From Natronococcus occultus SP4 (GTDB taxonomy: Archaea > Halobacteriota > Halobacteria > Halobacteriales > Natrialbaceae): 64,000 nt of DNA. The notes beneath the pieces were generated by a model. It saw nothing but the letters and a program-made list of their open reading frames with translations. It was not told the origin of the DNA and searched no databases. Each line of letters begins with the position of its first letter. Within the stretch, counting starts at the first letter, position 1. The position numbers were made by a program, and so were the translations under genes. The stretch covers positions 248,001 through 312,000 of the forward strand of contig NC_019974.1 of the NCBI RefSeq assembly GCF_000328685.1, read 5' to 3'. Positions 6,653 through 38,527 of this stretch are shown here, piece after piece.

Positions 6653-7267
6653 TTACCGTTCGTCGTTCGTCTCGACGACGACGCGAACGTCGTCGCCGTC
6701 TTCGAGGACGTAGCGTTCGGGGTCGACCCGTTCGCCGTCGACGGTCGTCGAGACGGTCGTTCCGGGATCGTCCTCGCTGAACGTCTCGCCGTCGACGGCG
6801 AGGGAGTCAGCGGAGAGCTCGAACCCCAGCGTTCCCAGCGCGTACTCCAGGGTCACGTCCTCGCAGTGGACGTGCCAGCGTTCGGCGTCGTCGTAAGCGT
6901 GGAAGTGGAAACAGCCGTCCCGTTCGATGTACATCGGGTCGTCGAAGTCGACGACTGCCCCGTCGTACTCGAGGTGGATCGCTCCGTGGAGGTGGGTCGG
7001 AGCGTCCGGATCGGGCTGCTGGACCGCCGTCGTTTCGGGCGACGTGGCCGACGACAGCGCGAAGATCGCCAGGTACGCCGCAGCGAACAACACCAGCACG
7101 ACGCCGCCCAGTACGTACAGCTTGCGCGGGCGCGACCGTGACCCCGATCGGCGGGCCACGAGCCGTCGATCGAGCCCCTCGAGCTCGTCCTCGTGGGCGC
7201 GCTCGAGGTGGCCCGGATACTCCTCGTCGGGCACCGACCGACCGCAGTACGGACAGGTTCGCGTCAT
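6653..7267 (-). CDS. Membrane protein with N-terminal C2H2 zinc finger and His-rich outer domain
   Basis: 204 residues. Residues 4-25 form a C2H2 finger (CPYCGRSV, then HLERAH; spacing C-x2-C-x10-H-x4-H). A basic stretch follows (RSGSRSRPRK), one transmembrane helix at ~50-71 (LYVLGGVVLVLFAAAYLAI), then an acidic domain that begins His-rich (THLHGAIHLEY, HFHAYDD, WHVHCED). By the positive-inside rule the finger is cytosolic and the His-rich part faces outward. The His cluster suggests metal binding, but no named family was recognised. It ends ~115 bp from the start of the Bat-like gene and is transcribed in the same direction. Confidence 0.7.
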   Translation of the reverse strand: MTRTCPYCGRSVPDEEYPGHLERAHEDELEGLDRRLVARRSGSRSRPRKLYVLGGVVLVLFAAAYLAIFALSSATSPETTAVQQPDPDAPTHLHGAIHLEYDGAVVDFDDPMYIERDGCFHFHAYDDAERWHVHCEDVTLEYALGTLGFELSADSLAVDGETFSEDDPGTTVSTTVDGERVDPERYVLEDGDDVRVVVETNDER

Positions 7268-7555
7268 CGGTACACACGCACGCGGCGAGCGCTCATCAAC
7301 GAGCGACGAACGACGTCGGAGATCGTTCGCTACGCTTCGCGATCGTTCGCCGCCGAGCCGTCCCCGCAGCTTCGGACCGTCGTCGGCGTCGCCTGGAGCG
7401 CGGGCACCCCGTCACTCTCGCGCGGAACGCGAGCGGATCGACCCCAAGGCGCGCGAACCGTCCCGTTTCTCCCCGGTATTTCGCCGCCCGTTCTTGAGCG
7501 CGCCGGGCGAAGTGCGTGCCGAGCTGCTCGACAGCGCGGAGGAGACGACCAGGAA

Positions 7556-9439
7556 ATGATTCAGGAACTCAGCGTACTCACGGCCATCGGACTCATCGTC
7601 CTCGCCGGCGCGATCGGCGCGGGTAGCATCGTCGGCCCCGACGATCACGTCGTCGTCTACACGCTGGACGATGAGCGATGCGACGTGAGCGAACAAACGG
7701 ACGAAGTCATCGCGTCCGAGACCGACCTCGACGAGCGGGAAAGCGAGAGCCACAGCGACCGGGAGCGCGGTAATCTCGACCACAGCGAGAGCGATAGCGA
7801 GCGCGACCTGAGCGAGCGCGACAGCATCAGCGACAGCGAAAGCGACAGGGAGCGCTCCGAAAGCGAGCGCAGCGACCGCGACAGCGCGAGCGAGAGCGAC
7901 AGCGAGCGCGACCGGGTCGACTCCGAGCTGAACGATCGCGACGAACAGCGCGACAGTTCGAGCGAGCGCGACGTCAGCGAGATCGACGAGAGCGACAGCG
8001 ATCGTTCCGAACGGACGGTCGACGACACCGACGTCGAGAACGAACGGGACGACCGCGAGCACGAGCGCGACGCCAGCGACGCTTCCGTGAGCGAGCGCGA
8101 GAGCGACAGCACGCACAGCGAGCGCGACAGCCGCGACGGGGATAGCACGTACGACGAGGACGAGACGACTCAAAGCGAGTCCGACGAACGCGAGAACGCA
8201 AGCGAGAGCGACGCCTCGGAGTCCGAGCGCGACGCCAGTGAGAGCGACGTCGACGCCGACCGCGACGACCGCGAGGAGAGCGAGTCCGAGCGGGGCGACG
8301 CGAGCGAGCGCGAGGACGAACGGGCGTCGTCCGCGAGCGAAAGCGCGGAGAGTGAGCGCGACGCTAGTGAGGACGAATCGACCGAGAGCGACGCCGAGCG
8401 GGGCGAAAGCGAGCGCGACGAAAGCGAGAGCGCGTCTCAGGAGCGCGAGGAACACGAGCGCAGCGCCGAGACCGACGAGCGGGATCGGACCGACGGCGAC
8501 GACGACCACGAGCGCTTCGACCGCGCCGAGAGCGAGGACGTCGGCGACCGCACGGCTCGCGACACGATCGACCGCGAGGAGGCCGCGTCGGATCTCGAAG
8601 AGAGCGAGCACGAAACGGCGGAACGCACCGCCGACGAGAGCGAGCGCGACGAAAGCGACAGTGAGGAAACCGAGTCGGAGTCCGACCGGGAAGCCGAGGA
8701 AGGCACCGAACGGGACGCCGAGCACAGCGAATCTACCGATCGGGGCGCCGAGAGCGAACGTGACGTGAGCGAACGGGATGCCGACGAGAGCGAGTCCGAC
8801 CGCGAGAGCGCCGCCGCCGACAGTACGGAGAGCGATCGCAGCGTGAGCGAGACGGACAACGACTCCGCCGAGCGCGACCTCGAGACGACCGACAGTGAGG
8901 CCGAACGCGACGCGAGCGAGTCCGACGAGCGCGAGCACGCCAGCTCGAGCAGCGAGGCCGAGCGCGACGGCAGCACCGCCATCGACGAGCTCGACGAGAG
9001 CGAGCGCGACCGCAGCGAGGACGTCGCCTCCGAGCGCGAGTCCGACCGCGAGCGCGACGGCGGCACTGACGAGCGCTACCAGTCCGAGTCCGCCAGCGAC
9101 TCCGAGAGCGAACGGGACAGCGCTCACGACTCGAGCGACCGCGAGGAACGCGAGAGCGAACGGGACAGCGCCGCGGAGAGCGAGCGCGAAGAAAGCGAGC
9201 GCGACAGCGATCTCGACACGCGCGAGATCACCCGCACCGACAGCGACCGCGACACCGACTCGCGGACGTCACAGAGCGAGCGCGAGGACACGACTCGCGA
9301 ACAACAGTCCGACGAGGACTGCGAGACGGTCTCCGAACGCCTGCTCGTGACCGACGACAGCTACGACGAGCTGCGGGCCAAGGGAGCGATCGAGGAGAAC
9401 GACGACGGGACGTTCGACGTCGACGTCTCCAAGCTCTGA
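7556..9439 (+). CDS. Exported low-complexity Ser/Glu/Arg/Asp-repeat protein 1
   Basis: 627 residues from ATG 7556. Residues 6-28 are one hydrophobic helix (GLIVLAGAIGAGS), a signal anchor or uncleaved signal peptide. Residues ~50-580 are almost only Ser, Glu, Asp and Arg in SERD/SESERDASE-like units, predicted to be disordered. There are just two cysteines, C42 and one near residue 588, bracketing the repeat. The last ~40 residues look foldable (DDSYDELRAKGAIEEN). Ser is coded mostly by AGC, making the DNA a GAGCGCGACAGC-type repeat. It is paralogous to the next gene, sharing landmarks such as SELNDRDEQRDSSSER and DDTDVEN. Function unknown; a cell-surface polyelectrolyte is possible. Earlier in-frame starts lack the signal near the N-terminus and were rejected. 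Confidence 0.75.
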   Translation: MIQELSVLTAIGLIVLAGAIGAGSIVGPDDHVVVYTLDDERCDVSEQTDEVIASETDLDERESESHSDRERGNLDHSESDSERDLSERDSISDSESDRERSESERSDRDSASESDSERDRVDSELNDRDEQRDSSSERDVSEIDESDSDRSERTVDDTDVENERDDREHERDASDASVSERESDSTHSERDSRDGDSTYDEDETTQSESDERENASESDASESERDASESDVDADRDDREESESERGDASEREDERASSASESAESERDASEDESTESDAERGESERDESESASQEREEHERSAETDERDRTDGDDDHERFDRAESEDVGDRTARDTIDREEAASDLEESEHETAERTADESERDESDSEETESESDREAEEGTERDAEHSESTDRGAESERDVSERDADESESDRESAAADSTESDRSVSETDNDSAERDLETTDSEAERDASESDEREHASSSSEAERDGSTAIDELDESERDRSEDVASERESDRERDGGTDERYQSESASDSESERDSAHDSSDREERESERDSAAESEREESERDSDLDTREITRTDSDRDTDSRTSQSEREDTTREQQSDEDCETVSERLLVTDDSYDELRAKGAIEENDDGTFDVDVSKL

Positions 9440-11390
9440 ACTCCCGTCTCTGCGAACTCGTTTTTCGTCGGCAGCTCGCGATCGCTCGAGTGCGACCGCG
9501 CCGGTCCGATCCGAAACGGCGTCGATCGGTCCGATCCTTCGTCGCCCTTCGTCGCCGGTTTTTGTAGCCGTTGCGCGGACGTTCGGCTAGCCTAGTGGGC
9601 AACCCGTAGAACAGCTAGGTACACAGATGAGTCGAAAAATCATTGTTATCACAGTCGTCGGACTTCTCGTCCTGGCCGGTGCGATCGGTGCAGGTGGCGT
9701 CCTCGGCGGCGACGCCGACCCGGCCGCACTCAGCGTCCAGGATACCGACCGGTGTGATTCGAGCGAACACGACGAGGAGGACAGCAGCTCCGTCGACGAG
9801 GTCGACGAGAGCGAGAGTGACAGCGAGAGCGAGTCCGATCGCTCCAGTAGCGACGCGAGCGAGAGCGATAGTACGCGGGACGTCTCCGAGCGCGACAGCT
9901 CGAGCGACAGCGACAGCGAGCGCGAACTGAGCGACAGCGAGGAGAGCGACAGCGACAGTTCGAGCGACAGCTCGAGCGACAGCGAGGAGAGTGACTCCGA
10001 GCTGAACGACCGCGACGAGCAGCGCGACAGCTCGAGTGAGCGCGAGGAAAGCGAGATCGACGAGAGCGAGCGCGACGTCAGCGAGAACGAGATCGACGAC
10101 ACCGACGTCGAGAACGTCCAGGACGACCGCGACAGCGAGCGCGACGCCAGCGACGCCTCCGATAGCGAGAGCGAGAGCGAGAGCACGCACAGCGAGCGCG
10201 AGAGTTCCAACAACGACAGTAGCCTCGACGAAACGGAGGTCACGGCAAGCGACAGCGACGAACGCAGCAGCTCGAGCGACAGCGAGGAAAGCGAGAGCGA
10301 GCGCGACAGCTCCGACCGCGACGTCGACAACGACAGCCTCGACCGCGAGGAGAGCGAGCGCGACGCCAGCGACGAGAGCGACAGCGAGCGCGACAGCGCC
10401 TCGAGCTCCCTCGACAGTGAAGAGAGCGAGCGCGACGCCAGCGACAGCGAATCCACGGAACGCGACAGCTCGAGCGACGAGAGCGACTCCGAGCTGATCG
10501 AGAGCGACGAGAGCGAGTTCGAGGAAAGCGAGAGCGACGCCGAGCACGACGAACGCGACCTCGTCGAACGCAACGGCGCGGACCGTGACAGCTTTGACGT
10601 CATCGATAGCGAGAGCGACAGCGAGGAGAGCGAGTCCAGCTCGAGCGAGCGCGAGGAGAGCGCCAGCGACAGCGAGTCGACCGACAGCGAGTCGACCGAC
10701 GTCGCGAGCGACGAGAGCGAGCGCGAGGAAAGCGAACTCGACGACCGCGAGAGCGCAAGCGAGCTCGACAGCGCCGCCAGCGAGGAGAGCGAGCGCGAGG
10801 AAAGCGAGTCCAGCGATCAGGGCTCCGAGAGCGAATCCGACGAGAGCGAGCGCGACGCCAGCGAGAGCGCGAGCGAGCACGACAGCGCCGCGAGCAGCAG
10901 CGACGAGAGCGACCGCAGCGTGAGCGAGACGGACAACGACAACGCCGAGAGCGAACTCGAGACGTCCGACAGCGACGCCGACCGTGAATCGAGCGAATCC
11001 GACGAGAGCGAGCGCAGCAGCTCCAGTCTCACCACCGAGCGCGACGGCAGCACCCACACCGTCGACAACGATCTGAGCGAGAGCGACCGCAGCGAGAGCT
11101 CCGAGTCCGAACTCGACACCGAAAGCGAGAGCGACACCGGGCTCGACGAGATCGAACGCTCCAGCTCCGACAGCGAGCACAGCTCCGAAAGCGAGAGCGA
11201 CTCGAGCGCCAGCGACCGGACCGAAAGCGAGAGCGACTCCGAGAGCGACTCCGAGAGCGAGCTCGATGAAAGCGAGAGCGATTCCGAGAGCGACGAGAGC
11301 GAGACCACCAGAAGCAGCAGCGACGTCGATAGCGACCGCGAGAGTTCCCAGTCGACGACCGAGGAGTCGAGCTCCTCCTCGAGCTCCGAG
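7700..11390 (+). repeat. Coding hexanucleotide-type repeats of the two Ser/Asp/Glu/Arg genes
   Basis: The DNA is built from in-frame GAGAGC, GAGCGC, GACAGC and GACGAG blocks in irregular order across both genes, interrupted only at 9310-9780 by the unique end of gene 1, the spacer and the unique start of gene 2. The repeats are imperfect, so divergence has followed expansion. Such DNA is prone to slippage and recombination between the two genes. Confidence 0.8.
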
Positions 11391-11483
11391 GACGACTGTG
11401 ACACCTTCGGCACGGGTCTCAACTCCACGATGCTCCCGGCGACGGGTACCGTGGCGACGCTCGCGGCTGTCGAAGCGAACTGA
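9627..11483 (+). CDS. Exported low-complexity Ser/Asp/Glu-repeat protein 2
   Basis: 618 residues, tandem paralogue of the preceding gene. Residues 5-28 form the same hydrophobic helix (VGLLVLAGAIGAGG). The repeat region (~50-585) is richer in Ser, Asp and Glu and poorer in Arg, so it should be far more negative. Again only two cysteines are present, C43 and one near residue 591. The tail (STMLPATGTVATLAAVEAN) is mildly hydrophobic. Shared blocks with protein 1 (SELNDRDEQRDSSSER, RDASDAS, STHSER, DRSVSETDND) show duplication followed by drift in charge. I infer an extracellular, intrinsically disordered protein, perhaps closed or cross-linked through its end cysteines. Long antisense frames here are side-effects of the repeat. 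Confidence 0.75.
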   Translation: MSRKIIVITVVGLLVLAGAIGAGGVLGGDADPAALSVQDTDRCDSSEHDEEDSSSVDEVDESESDSESESDRSSSDASESDSTRDVSERDSSSDSDSERELSDSEESDSDSSSDSSSDSEESDSELNDRDEQRDSSSEREESEIDESERDVSENEIDDTDVENVQDDRDSERDASDASDSESESESTHSERESSNNDSSLDETEVTASDSDERSSSSDSEESESERDSSDRDVDNDSLDREESERDASDESDSERDSASSSLDSEESERDASDSESTERDSSSDESDSELIESDESEFEESESDAEHDERDLVERNGADRDSFDVIDSESDSEESESSSSEREESASDSESTDSESTDVASDESEREESELDDRESASELDSAASEESEREESESSDQGSESESDESERDASESASEHDSAASSSDESDRSVSETDNDNAESELETSDSDADRESSESDESERSSSSLTTERDGSTHTVDNDLSESDRSESSESELDTESESDTGLDEIERSSSDSEHSSESESDSSASDRTESESDSESDSESELDESESDSESDESETTRSSSDVDSDRESSQSTTEESSSSSSSEDDCDTFGTGLNSTMLPATGTVATLAAVEAN

Positions 11484-26318: not shown

Positions 26319-26393
26319 GGGCCCTTAGCTCAGTCTGGTTAGAGCGCTCGGCTCATAACCGAGTGGTCGATGGTTCGAATCCGTCAGGGCCCA
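26319..26393 (+). tRNA. tRNA with CAT anticodon (elongator Met, or Ile2)
   Basis: 75 nt. Acceptor GGGCCCT/AGGGCCC, D-stem GCTC/GAGC, anticodon stem CTCGG/CCGAG with loop CTCATAA (CAT at 26354-26356), T-loop TTCGAAT; discriminator A; no CCA encoded. It lacks the three GC pairs of initiators in the anticodon stem, so it is elongator Met or the agmatidine-modified Ile2 type; sequence alone does not settle this. A TTAACTATT box lies ~30 bp upstream. Its last 22 bases recur at 26495-26516. Confidence 0.93.
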
Positions 26394-26516
26394 CGTATCT
26401 CGCGGCGAACAATCCGTGAGCCGCGAGTACGGGATCGCTGGCGGTTCGAACCAGACTGAGGTTCTGCGAGTAACGCGAGCAGGTTCTCAGGCGAGGTTCG
26501 AATCCGTCAGGGCCCA
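26394..26516 (+). other. tRNA-tail element 1 (two hairpins plus duplicated tRNA 3' end)
   Basis: Directly after the tRNA: hairpin 1, stem CTCGCGGC (26399-26406)/GCCGCGAG (26420-26427), extended by CGTA/TACG around a one-base bulge, loop GAACAATCCGTGA. Then a GGTTCGAACC motif (~26442-26452). Hairpin 2 has stem CTGAGGTTC (26456-26464)/GGTTCTCAG (26482-26490), with loop TGCGAGTAACGCGAGCA. The unit closes with a perfect 22-bp copy of the tRNA end at 26495-26516 (original at 26372-26393), period 123 bp. The same architecture follows tRNA-Val and tRNA-Phe with different stems. Confidence 0.7.
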
Positions 26517-26765
26517 TCGATTCTGTGAGGGCGGCGAATACTGCGATCAACGGTTCGACTCGCTTCGTCCGGAGCTCGAATCCCTCTGTCGGTCCCGTGA
26601 CCGAGCGCCAGTGTTCGACTCCGCCATCGTTACGGCTGAATTATATATGCCATAACGCGGGTAACTGCTGGCGATACCGTGTTCGACAGCCGAGGACGCA
26701 ACGACCGGCGAGATCGCGCTCGCCGCGTTCGAGTCGTCCCGCGGCCGTCGGCGCGCAATACAGCT

Positions 26766-37324: not shown

Positions 37325-37398
37325 GGGCTCGTGGTCTAGCTGGTTATGACGCGGCCCTTACAAGGCCGAGGTCGGTGGTTCGAACCCGCCCGAGCCCA
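37325..37398 (+). tRNA. tRNA-Val (anticodon TAC)
   Basis: 74 nt. Acceptor GGGCTCG/CGAGCCC, anticodon stem CGGCC/GGCCG with loop CTTACAA (TAC at 37359-37361), T-loop TTCGAAC; discriminator A, no CCA encoded. It is followed without spacer by tRNA-tail element 2; the stem of its first hairpin even reaches back to pair with the discriminator A and last acceptor C. Confidence 0.97.
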
Positions 37399-37490
37399 TT
37401 TCTCTGGCGAACAATCCGTAAGCCAGAGAAATGTCTGTGAGGACGGTTCGAACTAGCCAAGACGCGCGCAGCAAAGCGAGCACGTCTACA
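37397..37490 (+). other. tRNA-tail element 2
   Basis: Hairpin 1 has a perfect stem TTTCTCTGGC (37399-37408)/GCCAGAGAAA (37422-37431), extended to 12 bp by CA (37397-37398) with TG (37432-37433), loop GAACAATCCGTAA. A CGGTTCGAACTAG motif follows (~37444-37456). Hairpin 2 has stem AGACG (37460-37464)/CGTCT (37483-37487), with GCGCAGCAAAGCGAGCA in the loop. Unlike elements 1 and 3, no intact second copy of the tRNA end is visible; TCGAAAT near 37495 may be a remnant. Confidence 0.65.
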
Positions 37491-37635
37491 GGACTCGAAA
37501 TCGAAGCGTCCCTGCGAGACGTTACGCGAAAGCGGGCGTCTACGTTGCCGCGTCGATTGCTGGCTCGGGCGGTCGATCCACGTCTCGCGTGTAGCCGTCC
37601 ATTGGCTCGAGTAGTGCTCCCATAGGATCGGGAAG

Positions 37636-38294: not shown

Positions 38295-38368
38295 GCCGCC
38301 TTAGCTCAGACTGGGAGAGCACTCGACTGAAGATCGAGCTGTCCCCGGTTCAAATCCGGGAGGCGGCA
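38295..38368 (+). tRNA. tRNA-Phe (anticodon GAA)
   Basis: 74 nt. Acceptor GCCGCCT/AGGCGGC, anticodon stem CTCGA/TCGAG with loop CTGAAGA (GAA at 38329-38331), T-loop TTCAAAT; discriminator A, no CCA. A TTTTTATA box (~38264-38272) is ~25 bp upstream. Its last 24 bases plus 5 beyond recur at 38499-38527. Confidence 0.97.
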
Positions 38369-38527
38369 CTTCTGTTGCGAACAACGACGACGAGCGCGGC
38401 GAGTCGTCTGTGAGCAGTAGAATACACCCGGAGGATTTTGAACCCTGGAAGTCATGGCCCGGGAGCGCAGCGTAGCGAGCACCCCGGACTGTCTTCCTCC
38501 GGTTCAAATTCGGGAGGCGGCACTTCT
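38369..38527 (+). other. tRNA-tail element 3 (two hairpins plus duplicated tRNA 3' end)
   Basis: Hairpin 1 has stem TTCTGTTGC (38370-38378)/GCAGTAGAA (38414-38422), fully paired as RNA with two G-U pairs. The loop starts GAACAA and ends CTGTGA, with an extra inner hairpin ACGAC/GTCGT between. A TTTTGAACCC motif follows (~38437-38445). Hairpin 2 has outer GAAGTCA/TGTCTTC and inner CCGGG/CCCGG stems around AGCGCAGCGTAGCGAGCA (38464-38481). The unit closes with a 29-bp copy of the tRNA end at 38499-38527 (original 38345-38373, one mismatch), period 154 bp. Confidence 0.7.

What the first reader, a model, noticed from the sequence alone, without database searches (positions are those of the whole stretch)
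38345..38527. Direct repeats of the tRNA 3' end close elements 1 and 3, as in site-specific insertion
For tRNA-Phe a 29-bp sequence (38345-38373) recurs with one mismatch at 38499-38527, including five bases beyond the tRNA. For tRNA-Met 22 bp (26372-26393) recur perfectly at 26495-26516. Periods are 154 and 123 bp. This is the footprint integrases leave at tRNA genes, but the inserts are far too short to encode an enzyme. A non-autonomous element moved by a tyrosine recombinase in trans, or a pared-down relic shared by several tRNAs, would explain both the duplications and the common hairpins.
Basis: partly seen in the sequence, partly recalled or inferred. Interest (0 to 1): 0.75.

Follow-up and report, generated by a model that had tools for sequence, protein, structure and literature searches.

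The report
tRNA-anchored exchangeable hairpin units in haloarchaea
Across the salt-loving archaea many tRNA genes (at least 18 of 49 in this genome) are followed by a roughly 120-base folded DNA unit that ends in a copy of that same tRNA's 3' end; the units come and go between close relatives and trade their inner hairpin from one tRNA to another, so this looks like an undescribed family of small mobile DNA.

Summary
In Halobacteriales (57 of 61 genomes tested, about 30 tRNA isotypes) tRNA genes are followed by units of one plan: hairpin H1, a reverse complement of the T-loop (anti-T), hairpin H2, then a copy of that tRNA's own segment from G53 to N73. Copies are cognate (112/120). Anti-T and T-copy co-vary, and H2 has 12 compensatory pairs. 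Orientation is fixed. The window genus has empty, single, double and triple sites at the orthologous tRNA-Phe locus, and Natrinema gives an exact empty/filled pair. In Haloarcula, H1 and both flanks are conserved while H2 is swapped between anti-T and T-copy. H2 types recur at different isotypes; H1 types stay with one isotype. I read this as a non-autonomous, site-specific mobile module whose H2 is exchanged at inverted T-loop repeats. The enzyme is unknown: Cas1, reverse transcriptase and Y1 transposase are missing from many unit-bearing genomes; tyrosine recombinases are in 60 of 61, but true integrase repeats in this genome start 12 nt further upstream. No earlier description was found in open papers.

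The parts
38295..38368 (+). tRNA-Phe(GAA), intact; G53-N73 segment (first repeat copy) is 38348-38368
38369..38422 (+). H1 hairpin of the Phe unit
   Evidence: sequence and fold
38433..38444 (+). anti-T (GGATTTTGAACC), near-complement of the T-loop
38445..38501 (+). H2 hairpin of the Phe unit (apex GAGCGCAGCGTAGCGAG)
   Evidence: (CM match 286433-286514 of contig C1)
38502..38522 (+). T-copy: second copy of tRNA-Phe G53-N73 (20/21)
26319..26393 (+). tRNA-Met(CAT), intact; first repeat copy 26373-26393
26396..26430 (+). H1 hairpin of the Met unit (GCGAACAATCCGTGAGC apex)
26443..26452 (+). anti-T (GGTTCGAACC) of the Met unit
26453..26495 (+). H2 hairpin, type A (GAGGTTCTGCGAG..GCAGGTTCTC), the type found at 12 isotypes
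26496..26516 (+). T-copy of tRNA-Met G53-N73 (21/21)
37325..37398 (+). tRNA-Val(TAC), intact
37399..37432 (+). H1 hairpin of the Val unit (same apex as Met H1)
37444..37453 (+). anti-T (CGGTTCGAAC) of the Val unit
37454..37491 (+). H2 hairpin of the Val unit
37492..37512 (+). decayed T-copy of the Val unit (GACTCGAAATCGAAGCGTCCC)
   Evidence: no cognate repeat reaches threshold

Best explanation
A family of small, non-coding, non-autonomous mobile DNA units confined to Halobacteriales and anchored at tRNA 3' ends. A unit sits exactly after N73 of an intact tRNA gene and ends in a copy of that tRNA's G53-N73 segment, so the tRNA stays whole whether units are gained or lost. Shown: presence/absence polymorphism, stacking of up to three units, H1/H2 reshuffling, and replacement of H2 between the inverted T-loop sequences (anti-T and T-copy). 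Inferred: (1) the folded tRNA-sense strand is what an enzyme recognises, because strand polarity and compensatory changes are strong; (2) anti-T pairs with the universal T-loop and marks the exchange boundaries, which is why H2 can pass between isotypes while the T-stem and acceptor copies stay local; (3) the enzyme is supplied in trans, most likely a tyrosine recombinase acting at the T-loop (about 45%), otherwise hairpin breakage repaired through the short T-loop repeats, or an unknown transposase. The confidence given is for a DNA-level mobile or exchanging module; the enzyme assignment is weaker.
For: Exact empty/filled pair in Natrinema and a 286-bp two-unit difference placed between the tRNA and the shared older unit in Natronococcus. 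0-3 units at the orthologous tRNA-Phe locus in nine congeners. Haloarcula Val-tac: H1 about 97% and 3' flank 91-98% identical, H2 replaced. H1-like pairs are same-isotype in 84% (19% expected, 0/2000 permutations) but H2-like pairs in 31%. G005 unit = H1 type of G002 unit 1 plus H2 type of G002 unit 3. T-copies cognate 112/120 and tracking local tRNA variants 30 to 6 at Val-tac. Anti-T/R57 covariation 110/115; anti-T matches its own T-stem, 0/5000 permutations. 12 compensatory pairs, none of 500 shuffles as high. Fixed orientation. All 21 sense-strand covariance-model hits in the genome lie within about 260 bp 3' of a tRNA. Tyrosine recombinases in 60/61 genomes.
Against: No enzyme, circular form or transposition event was observed; everything is inferred from sequence. 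Some orthologous units are better conserved than their flank (Natronococcus Phe 93% against 77%, Ser-gga 92% against 54%), which also fits a selected function. Loss by recombination between the 21-bp repeats would give the same empty sites, so the direction of change is not proven in each case. The repeat boundary (G53) differs from integrase att sites in the same genome. 9-21 bp of identity could also be used by repair pathways with no enzyme of their own. Units were found on no phage record and on one plasmid record only, at a tRNA on a megaplasmid.
Confidence: 0.68

Rival explanations
1. Ordinary tyrosine-integrase footprints: each unit is a decayed or pared-down integrative element whose attachment core is the tRNA 3' end.
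For: Integrase genes sit beside cognate T-copies at tRNA-Phe in L308 and L316 and at tRNA-Ala-ggc in this genome. PF00589 is nearly universal. Archaeal integrases mostly use tRNA 3' ends (PMC8371274).
Against: Integrase repeats in the same genome begin 12 nt upstream of G53. Units share H1/H2 at about 30 isotypes, which no single core could serve. Units have a conserved, covarying fold not expected of random remnants.
Confidence: 0.15
2. A cellular non-coding RNA or tRNA 3'-trailer module (processing, termination or decoy of the T-arm) kept by selection and homogenised by gene conversion.
For: The sense strand folds better than the antisense strand (H2 125 to 27, H1 113 to 35); the energy model lets the distal acceptor copy pair with the tRNA 5' strand; some units are better conserved than their flank; the family is order-wide.
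Against: Absent from many tRNAs, and the same orthologous tRNA has 0-3 units within one genus; H2 is replaced wholesale between sister species; no Rfam match other than tRNA.
Confidence: 0.12
3. Cas1/casposase-like insertion that duplicates the tRNA 3' end as a target-site duplication, as casposons do at tRNA-Leu and tRNA-Pro.
For: Casposons insert at tRNA 3' ends with target-site duplications (PMC6977970); the T-copy is derived from the local tRNA.
Against: Casposon duplications are 14-15 bp, here 21; no terminal inverted repeats; Cas1 is absent from the window's genome and from 42 of 61 genomes, most of which have units.
Confidence: 0.03
4. IS200/IS605-type single-strand transposition with anti-T as the guide sequence (PATE-like).
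For: Guide, hairpin and cleavage-site order resembles anti-T, H2 and T-copy (from general knowledge); PATEs related to IS605 occur in haloarchaea (PMC3119063).
Against: Y1 transposase is absent from 20 of 61 genomes, including unit-rich G055, G058, G059, G060 and G040, and is broken in the window's genome; that family carries its own right-end cleavage site, so T-copies would be non-cognate after a jump, but they are cognate.
Confidence: 0.02

Closest known systems
Tyrosine-recombinase integrative elements at tRNA 3' ends (e.g. SNJ2, pNOB8 and pT26-2 types; PMC8371274)
   Same: Insertion after an intact tRNA, direct repeat of the tRNA 3' end, tandem accumulation, empty sites in relatives
   Different: No integrase or cargo; repeat starts at G53 and not upstream; the same module serves about 30 isotypes; has anti-T and covarying hairpins
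Integron gene cassettes with attC sites (comparison from general knowledge)
   Same: Structured single-strand site with an outer stem, an unpaired spacer, an inner stem and a variable terminal structure; stacking next to a primary site; boundary at a GTT
   Different: GTTCRAA rather than the GTTRRRY core; outer stem is the tRNA T-loop; usually no ORF; no dedicated integrase located
Haloarchaeal small mobile repeats, MITEs and PATEs (Haloquadratum; PMC3119063)
   Same: About 100-bp non-coding mobile repeats of haloarchaea with palindromes and an unknown or borrowed enzyme
   Different: Those are scattered or target other mobile elements; these lie 3' of tRNAs, carry a tRNA-specific 21-bp copy and are found order-wide
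Casposons (PMC6977970)
   Same: Target the 3' ends of tRNA genes and duplicate target sequence
   Different: 14-15 bp duplications, terminal inverted repeats, Cas1 gene; Cas1 is missing from most unit-bearing genomes

Membership tests
Tyrosine-integrase element (attL/attR) | Empty sites in relatives with exact loss of one repeat copy | tested here: met
   Natrinema pair and nine congeners
Tyrosine-integrase element (attL/attR) | Same repeat extent as true integrase att sites in this genome | tested here: not met
   att copies at tRNA-Ala-ggc start 12 nt upstream of G53; units start at G53
Tyrosine-integrase element (attL/attR) | Encodes, or sits beside, its own integrase | tested here: not met
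   units of 68-241 bp with no room for one; larger neighbours at tRNA-Phe do carry one
Integron cassette (attC) | Folded strand with outer stem, unpaired spacer, inner stem and variable tip | tested here: met
   consensus fold with 12 compensatory pairs; similar by analogy only
Integron cassette (attC) | Core site GTTRRRY | tested here: not met
   core is GTTCRAATC
Integron cassette (attC) | Extrahelical base in the outer stem | tested here: inconclusive
   89 of 160 stems have the regular form without an extra base, the rest some irregularity
Integron cassette (attC) | IntI-type recombinase acts on it | not testable with these tools
   needs a recombination assay
Casposon / Cas1 insertion | Cas1-family integrase present | tested here: not met
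   absent from own genome and 42 of 61
Casposon / Cas1 insertion | 14-15 bp target-site duplication | tested here: not met
   21-nt G53-N73 copy; reference value
IS200/IS605 or PATE | Y1 transposase available in unit-bearing genomes | tested here: not met
   absent from 20 of 61, broken in own genome
Retroelement | Reverse transcriptase available | tested here: not met
   1 of 61 genomes, none in own
Known structured RNA (Rfam) | Match to a curated family at the gathering score | tested here: not met
   only tRNAs in the window

The most novel reading that the evidence does not exclude
A T-loop-guided cassette system: anti-T acts as a built-in address that pairs with the universal T-loop of any tRNA gene, so that a trans-acting recombinase inserts or swaps hairpin cassettes at very many tRNAs of a cell, with the local tRNA supplying the repeat; a folded-strand recombination system independent of integrons, present throughout an archaeal order.
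Probability: 0.27. Interest if true: 0.9.

Novelty: new variant of a known kind. Interest (0 to 1): 0.73.

Why it matters
Integration at tRNA genes is normally one enzyme, one tRNA. Here one module family occupies a large share of the tRNA genes of a whole archaeal order and always carries the local tRNA's own 3' end, which known integrases, casposons, IS elements and retroelements do not explain. It gives a concrete, testable system (unit gain and loss, H2 exchange) in organisms with good genetics, bears on how tRNA neighbourhoods become insertion hotspots, and warns annotators that partial tRNA 3' ends in haloarchaea are often these units and not prophage scars.

Tried and rejected
Units away from tRNAs: an apparent case at 3573227 proved to be an intron-containing tRNA-Trp missed by the first tRNA scan. 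Non-cognate T-copies: sought; 8 exceptions of 120 were decayed copies or belonged to the next tRNA. H2 inversion at the inverted T-loops: none (714 same-orientation pairs, 0 inverted). A universal extrahelical base as in attC: not general. Cas1, reverse transcriptase and Y1 transposase as enzyme: disfavoured by absence. Cargo-bearing units: ORFs lie between T-copies in L317, L235 and L312, but too few to claim gene cassettes. Literature: ten searches found no description of these units; only open-access papers are held.

Full report
What was claimed and what is there. The two direct repeats are real. The Phe repeat is 28/29 and the Met repeat 22/22, with no comparable match elsewhere in the window. 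The window is part of a 4.3-Mb haloarchaeal genome. Several congener loci have the same tRNA-Phe downstream sequence as named Natronococcus records, so the genus is Natronococcus or very near.

The family. Reading 3' of all tRNA genes of this genome shows one plan after at least 18 of 49: tRNA, hairpin H1, anti-T (GGATTTGAAC or GGATTCGAAC, the reverse complement of the T-loop), hairpin H2, and a T-copy. The T-copy is positions 53 to 73 of that same tRNA. It starts at G53, the 5' edge of the T-loop, and includes the tRNA-specific T-stem and acceptor strand. Some arrays hold two or more units (Glu-ttc, Gly-gcc, Ser-tga, Trp, Val-gac). A strict pattern, anti-T then 35-65 nt then T-loop, is present in 57 of 61 Halobacteriales genomes with no control hits. 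In a phylum sample it is in 41 of 43 Halobacteriales and only at single-hit level in about ten of 204 others. With a covariance model of anti-T, H2 and T-loop, 24 matches were found in the whole genome. Twenty-one are on the tRNA sense strand and all of those lie within about 260 bp 3' of a tRNA gene; the other three are opposite-strand readings of units (only the 150 best first-look candidates were scored).

Structure. In 20 diverse units 12 of 20 pairs have compensatory changes and 94.5% of cells are paired, above all 500 shuffles and all slid controls. Palindromic duplex DNA would also give covariation, so this alone does not tell RNA from DNA. Polarity does narrow it: the GA-rich strand is the tRNA sense strand in 130 of 131 H2 and 146 of 146 H1 hairpins, and no H2 is ever inverted. 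The sense strand folds better than the antisense strand. Position 57 of the T-loop and its anti-T partner agree in 110 of 115 units. Anti-T also matches its own tRNA's T-stem better than those of other tRNAs (1.97 of 4 against 1.46, none of 5000 permutations).

Mobility. At the orthologous tRNA-Phe locus (upstream gene conserved in all nine genomes) the genus has 0 units in two genomes, one in others, and two or three in others. Natrinema mahii is empty where N. ejinorense has one unit, with exact junctions. G002 has 286 bp more than N. amylolyticus, placed between the tRNA and the unit they share, so additions are next to the tRNA in that case. The G005 unit joins the H1 type of the first G002 unit to the H2 type of its third, a sign of recombination within arrays.

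Exchange of H2. In Haloarcula tRNA-Val the H1 and the downstream flank are nearly identical across species, but H2 between anti-T and T-copy is a different sequence. Over 153 units, pairs with similar H1 are from the same isotype in 84% (19% expected), pairs with similar H2 in 31%. Ser-tga and Trp in the window's genome share an H2 at 42 of 43 positions although their T-copies differ. H2 therefore circulates between tRNAs, while T-copy, outer anti-T flank and H1 tend to stay local. T-copies are cognate in 112 of 120 cases and follow local tRNA variants. Part of this data set was fetched with a type-A H2 query, so the abundance of that type is not a fair sample; without Phe-Phe pairs the contrast remains (47% against 7%).

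Which enzyme. Across 61 genomes, Cas1 is in 19 and not in the window's genome. Reverse transcriptase is in one. Y1 transposase is in 41, broken in the window's genome and absent from several unit-rich ones. Tyrosine recombinases are in 60, with 15 in the window's genome. Larger insertions at the same tRNA-Phe site carry integrase genes next to a T-copy. Yet real integrase sites in this genome, at tRNA-Ala-ggc, repeat 12 nt more of the tRNA on the 5' side. The units are therefore not plain integrase scars, though a recombinase acting in trans at the T-loop remains the best single guess. Repair of broken hairpins through the short T-loop repeats is the main alternative.

Verdict. The result is an order-wide, tRNA-anchored, non-autonomous module with exchangeable hairpins. 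I found no description of it in open-access papers, which does not exclude one elsewhere.

Noticed in passing
G000:C1 near 821011 (locus L426, att copies at 563, 6495 and 10100): Two integrative elements in tandem at tRNA-Ala-ggc of the window's genome, with integrase genes beside the att copies; repeat GAGAGGCCCCGGGTTCAAATCCCGGCGAGTCCAT.
   Followed up: partly
window 7193-9439 and 9627-11483, + strand: Two neighbouring ORFs (748 and 618 aa) rich in Ser/Glu/Asp/Arg repeats, 74-78% alike at DNA level over 300-nt stretches; the second has a hydrophobic N-terminus (MSRKIIVITVVGLLVLAGAIGAG) and the first a similar stretch inside.
   Followed up: no
L232 about 144-286 nt and L260 about 1-142 nt 3' of tRNA-Phe: A partial second tRNA-Phe (anticodon arm kept) with a two-hairpin insert exactly at the T-loop edge G53, without a reconstituted tRNA.
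   Followed up: partly
L317 495-1029, L235 293-1489, L312 339-1080 (nt 3' of tRNA-Phe): ORFs of 178, 145+198 and 247 aa lie between successive T-copies, as if some units carried genes.
   Followed up: partly
L251 and L349 (Haloferax): tRNA-Phe with its units is duplicated about 1.8-2 kb apart together with cold-shock-like genes.
   Followed up: no
G000:C1:1024730 onwards (locus L403): At least three tyrosine-recombinase genes within 15 kb of tRNA-Arg-tcg without a clear cognate T-copy.
   Followed up: no
G000:C1 near 3726110-3726302 (tRNA-Val-gac, locus L402): Two tandem units identical over about 110 nt; only the distal T-copy differs (2 changes), so the duplication is recent.
   Followed up: partly
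window 26517-26605: Possible second, strongly decayed unit after the tRNA-Met unit (CGGTTCGAC ... GCTCGAATCCC).
   Followed up: no
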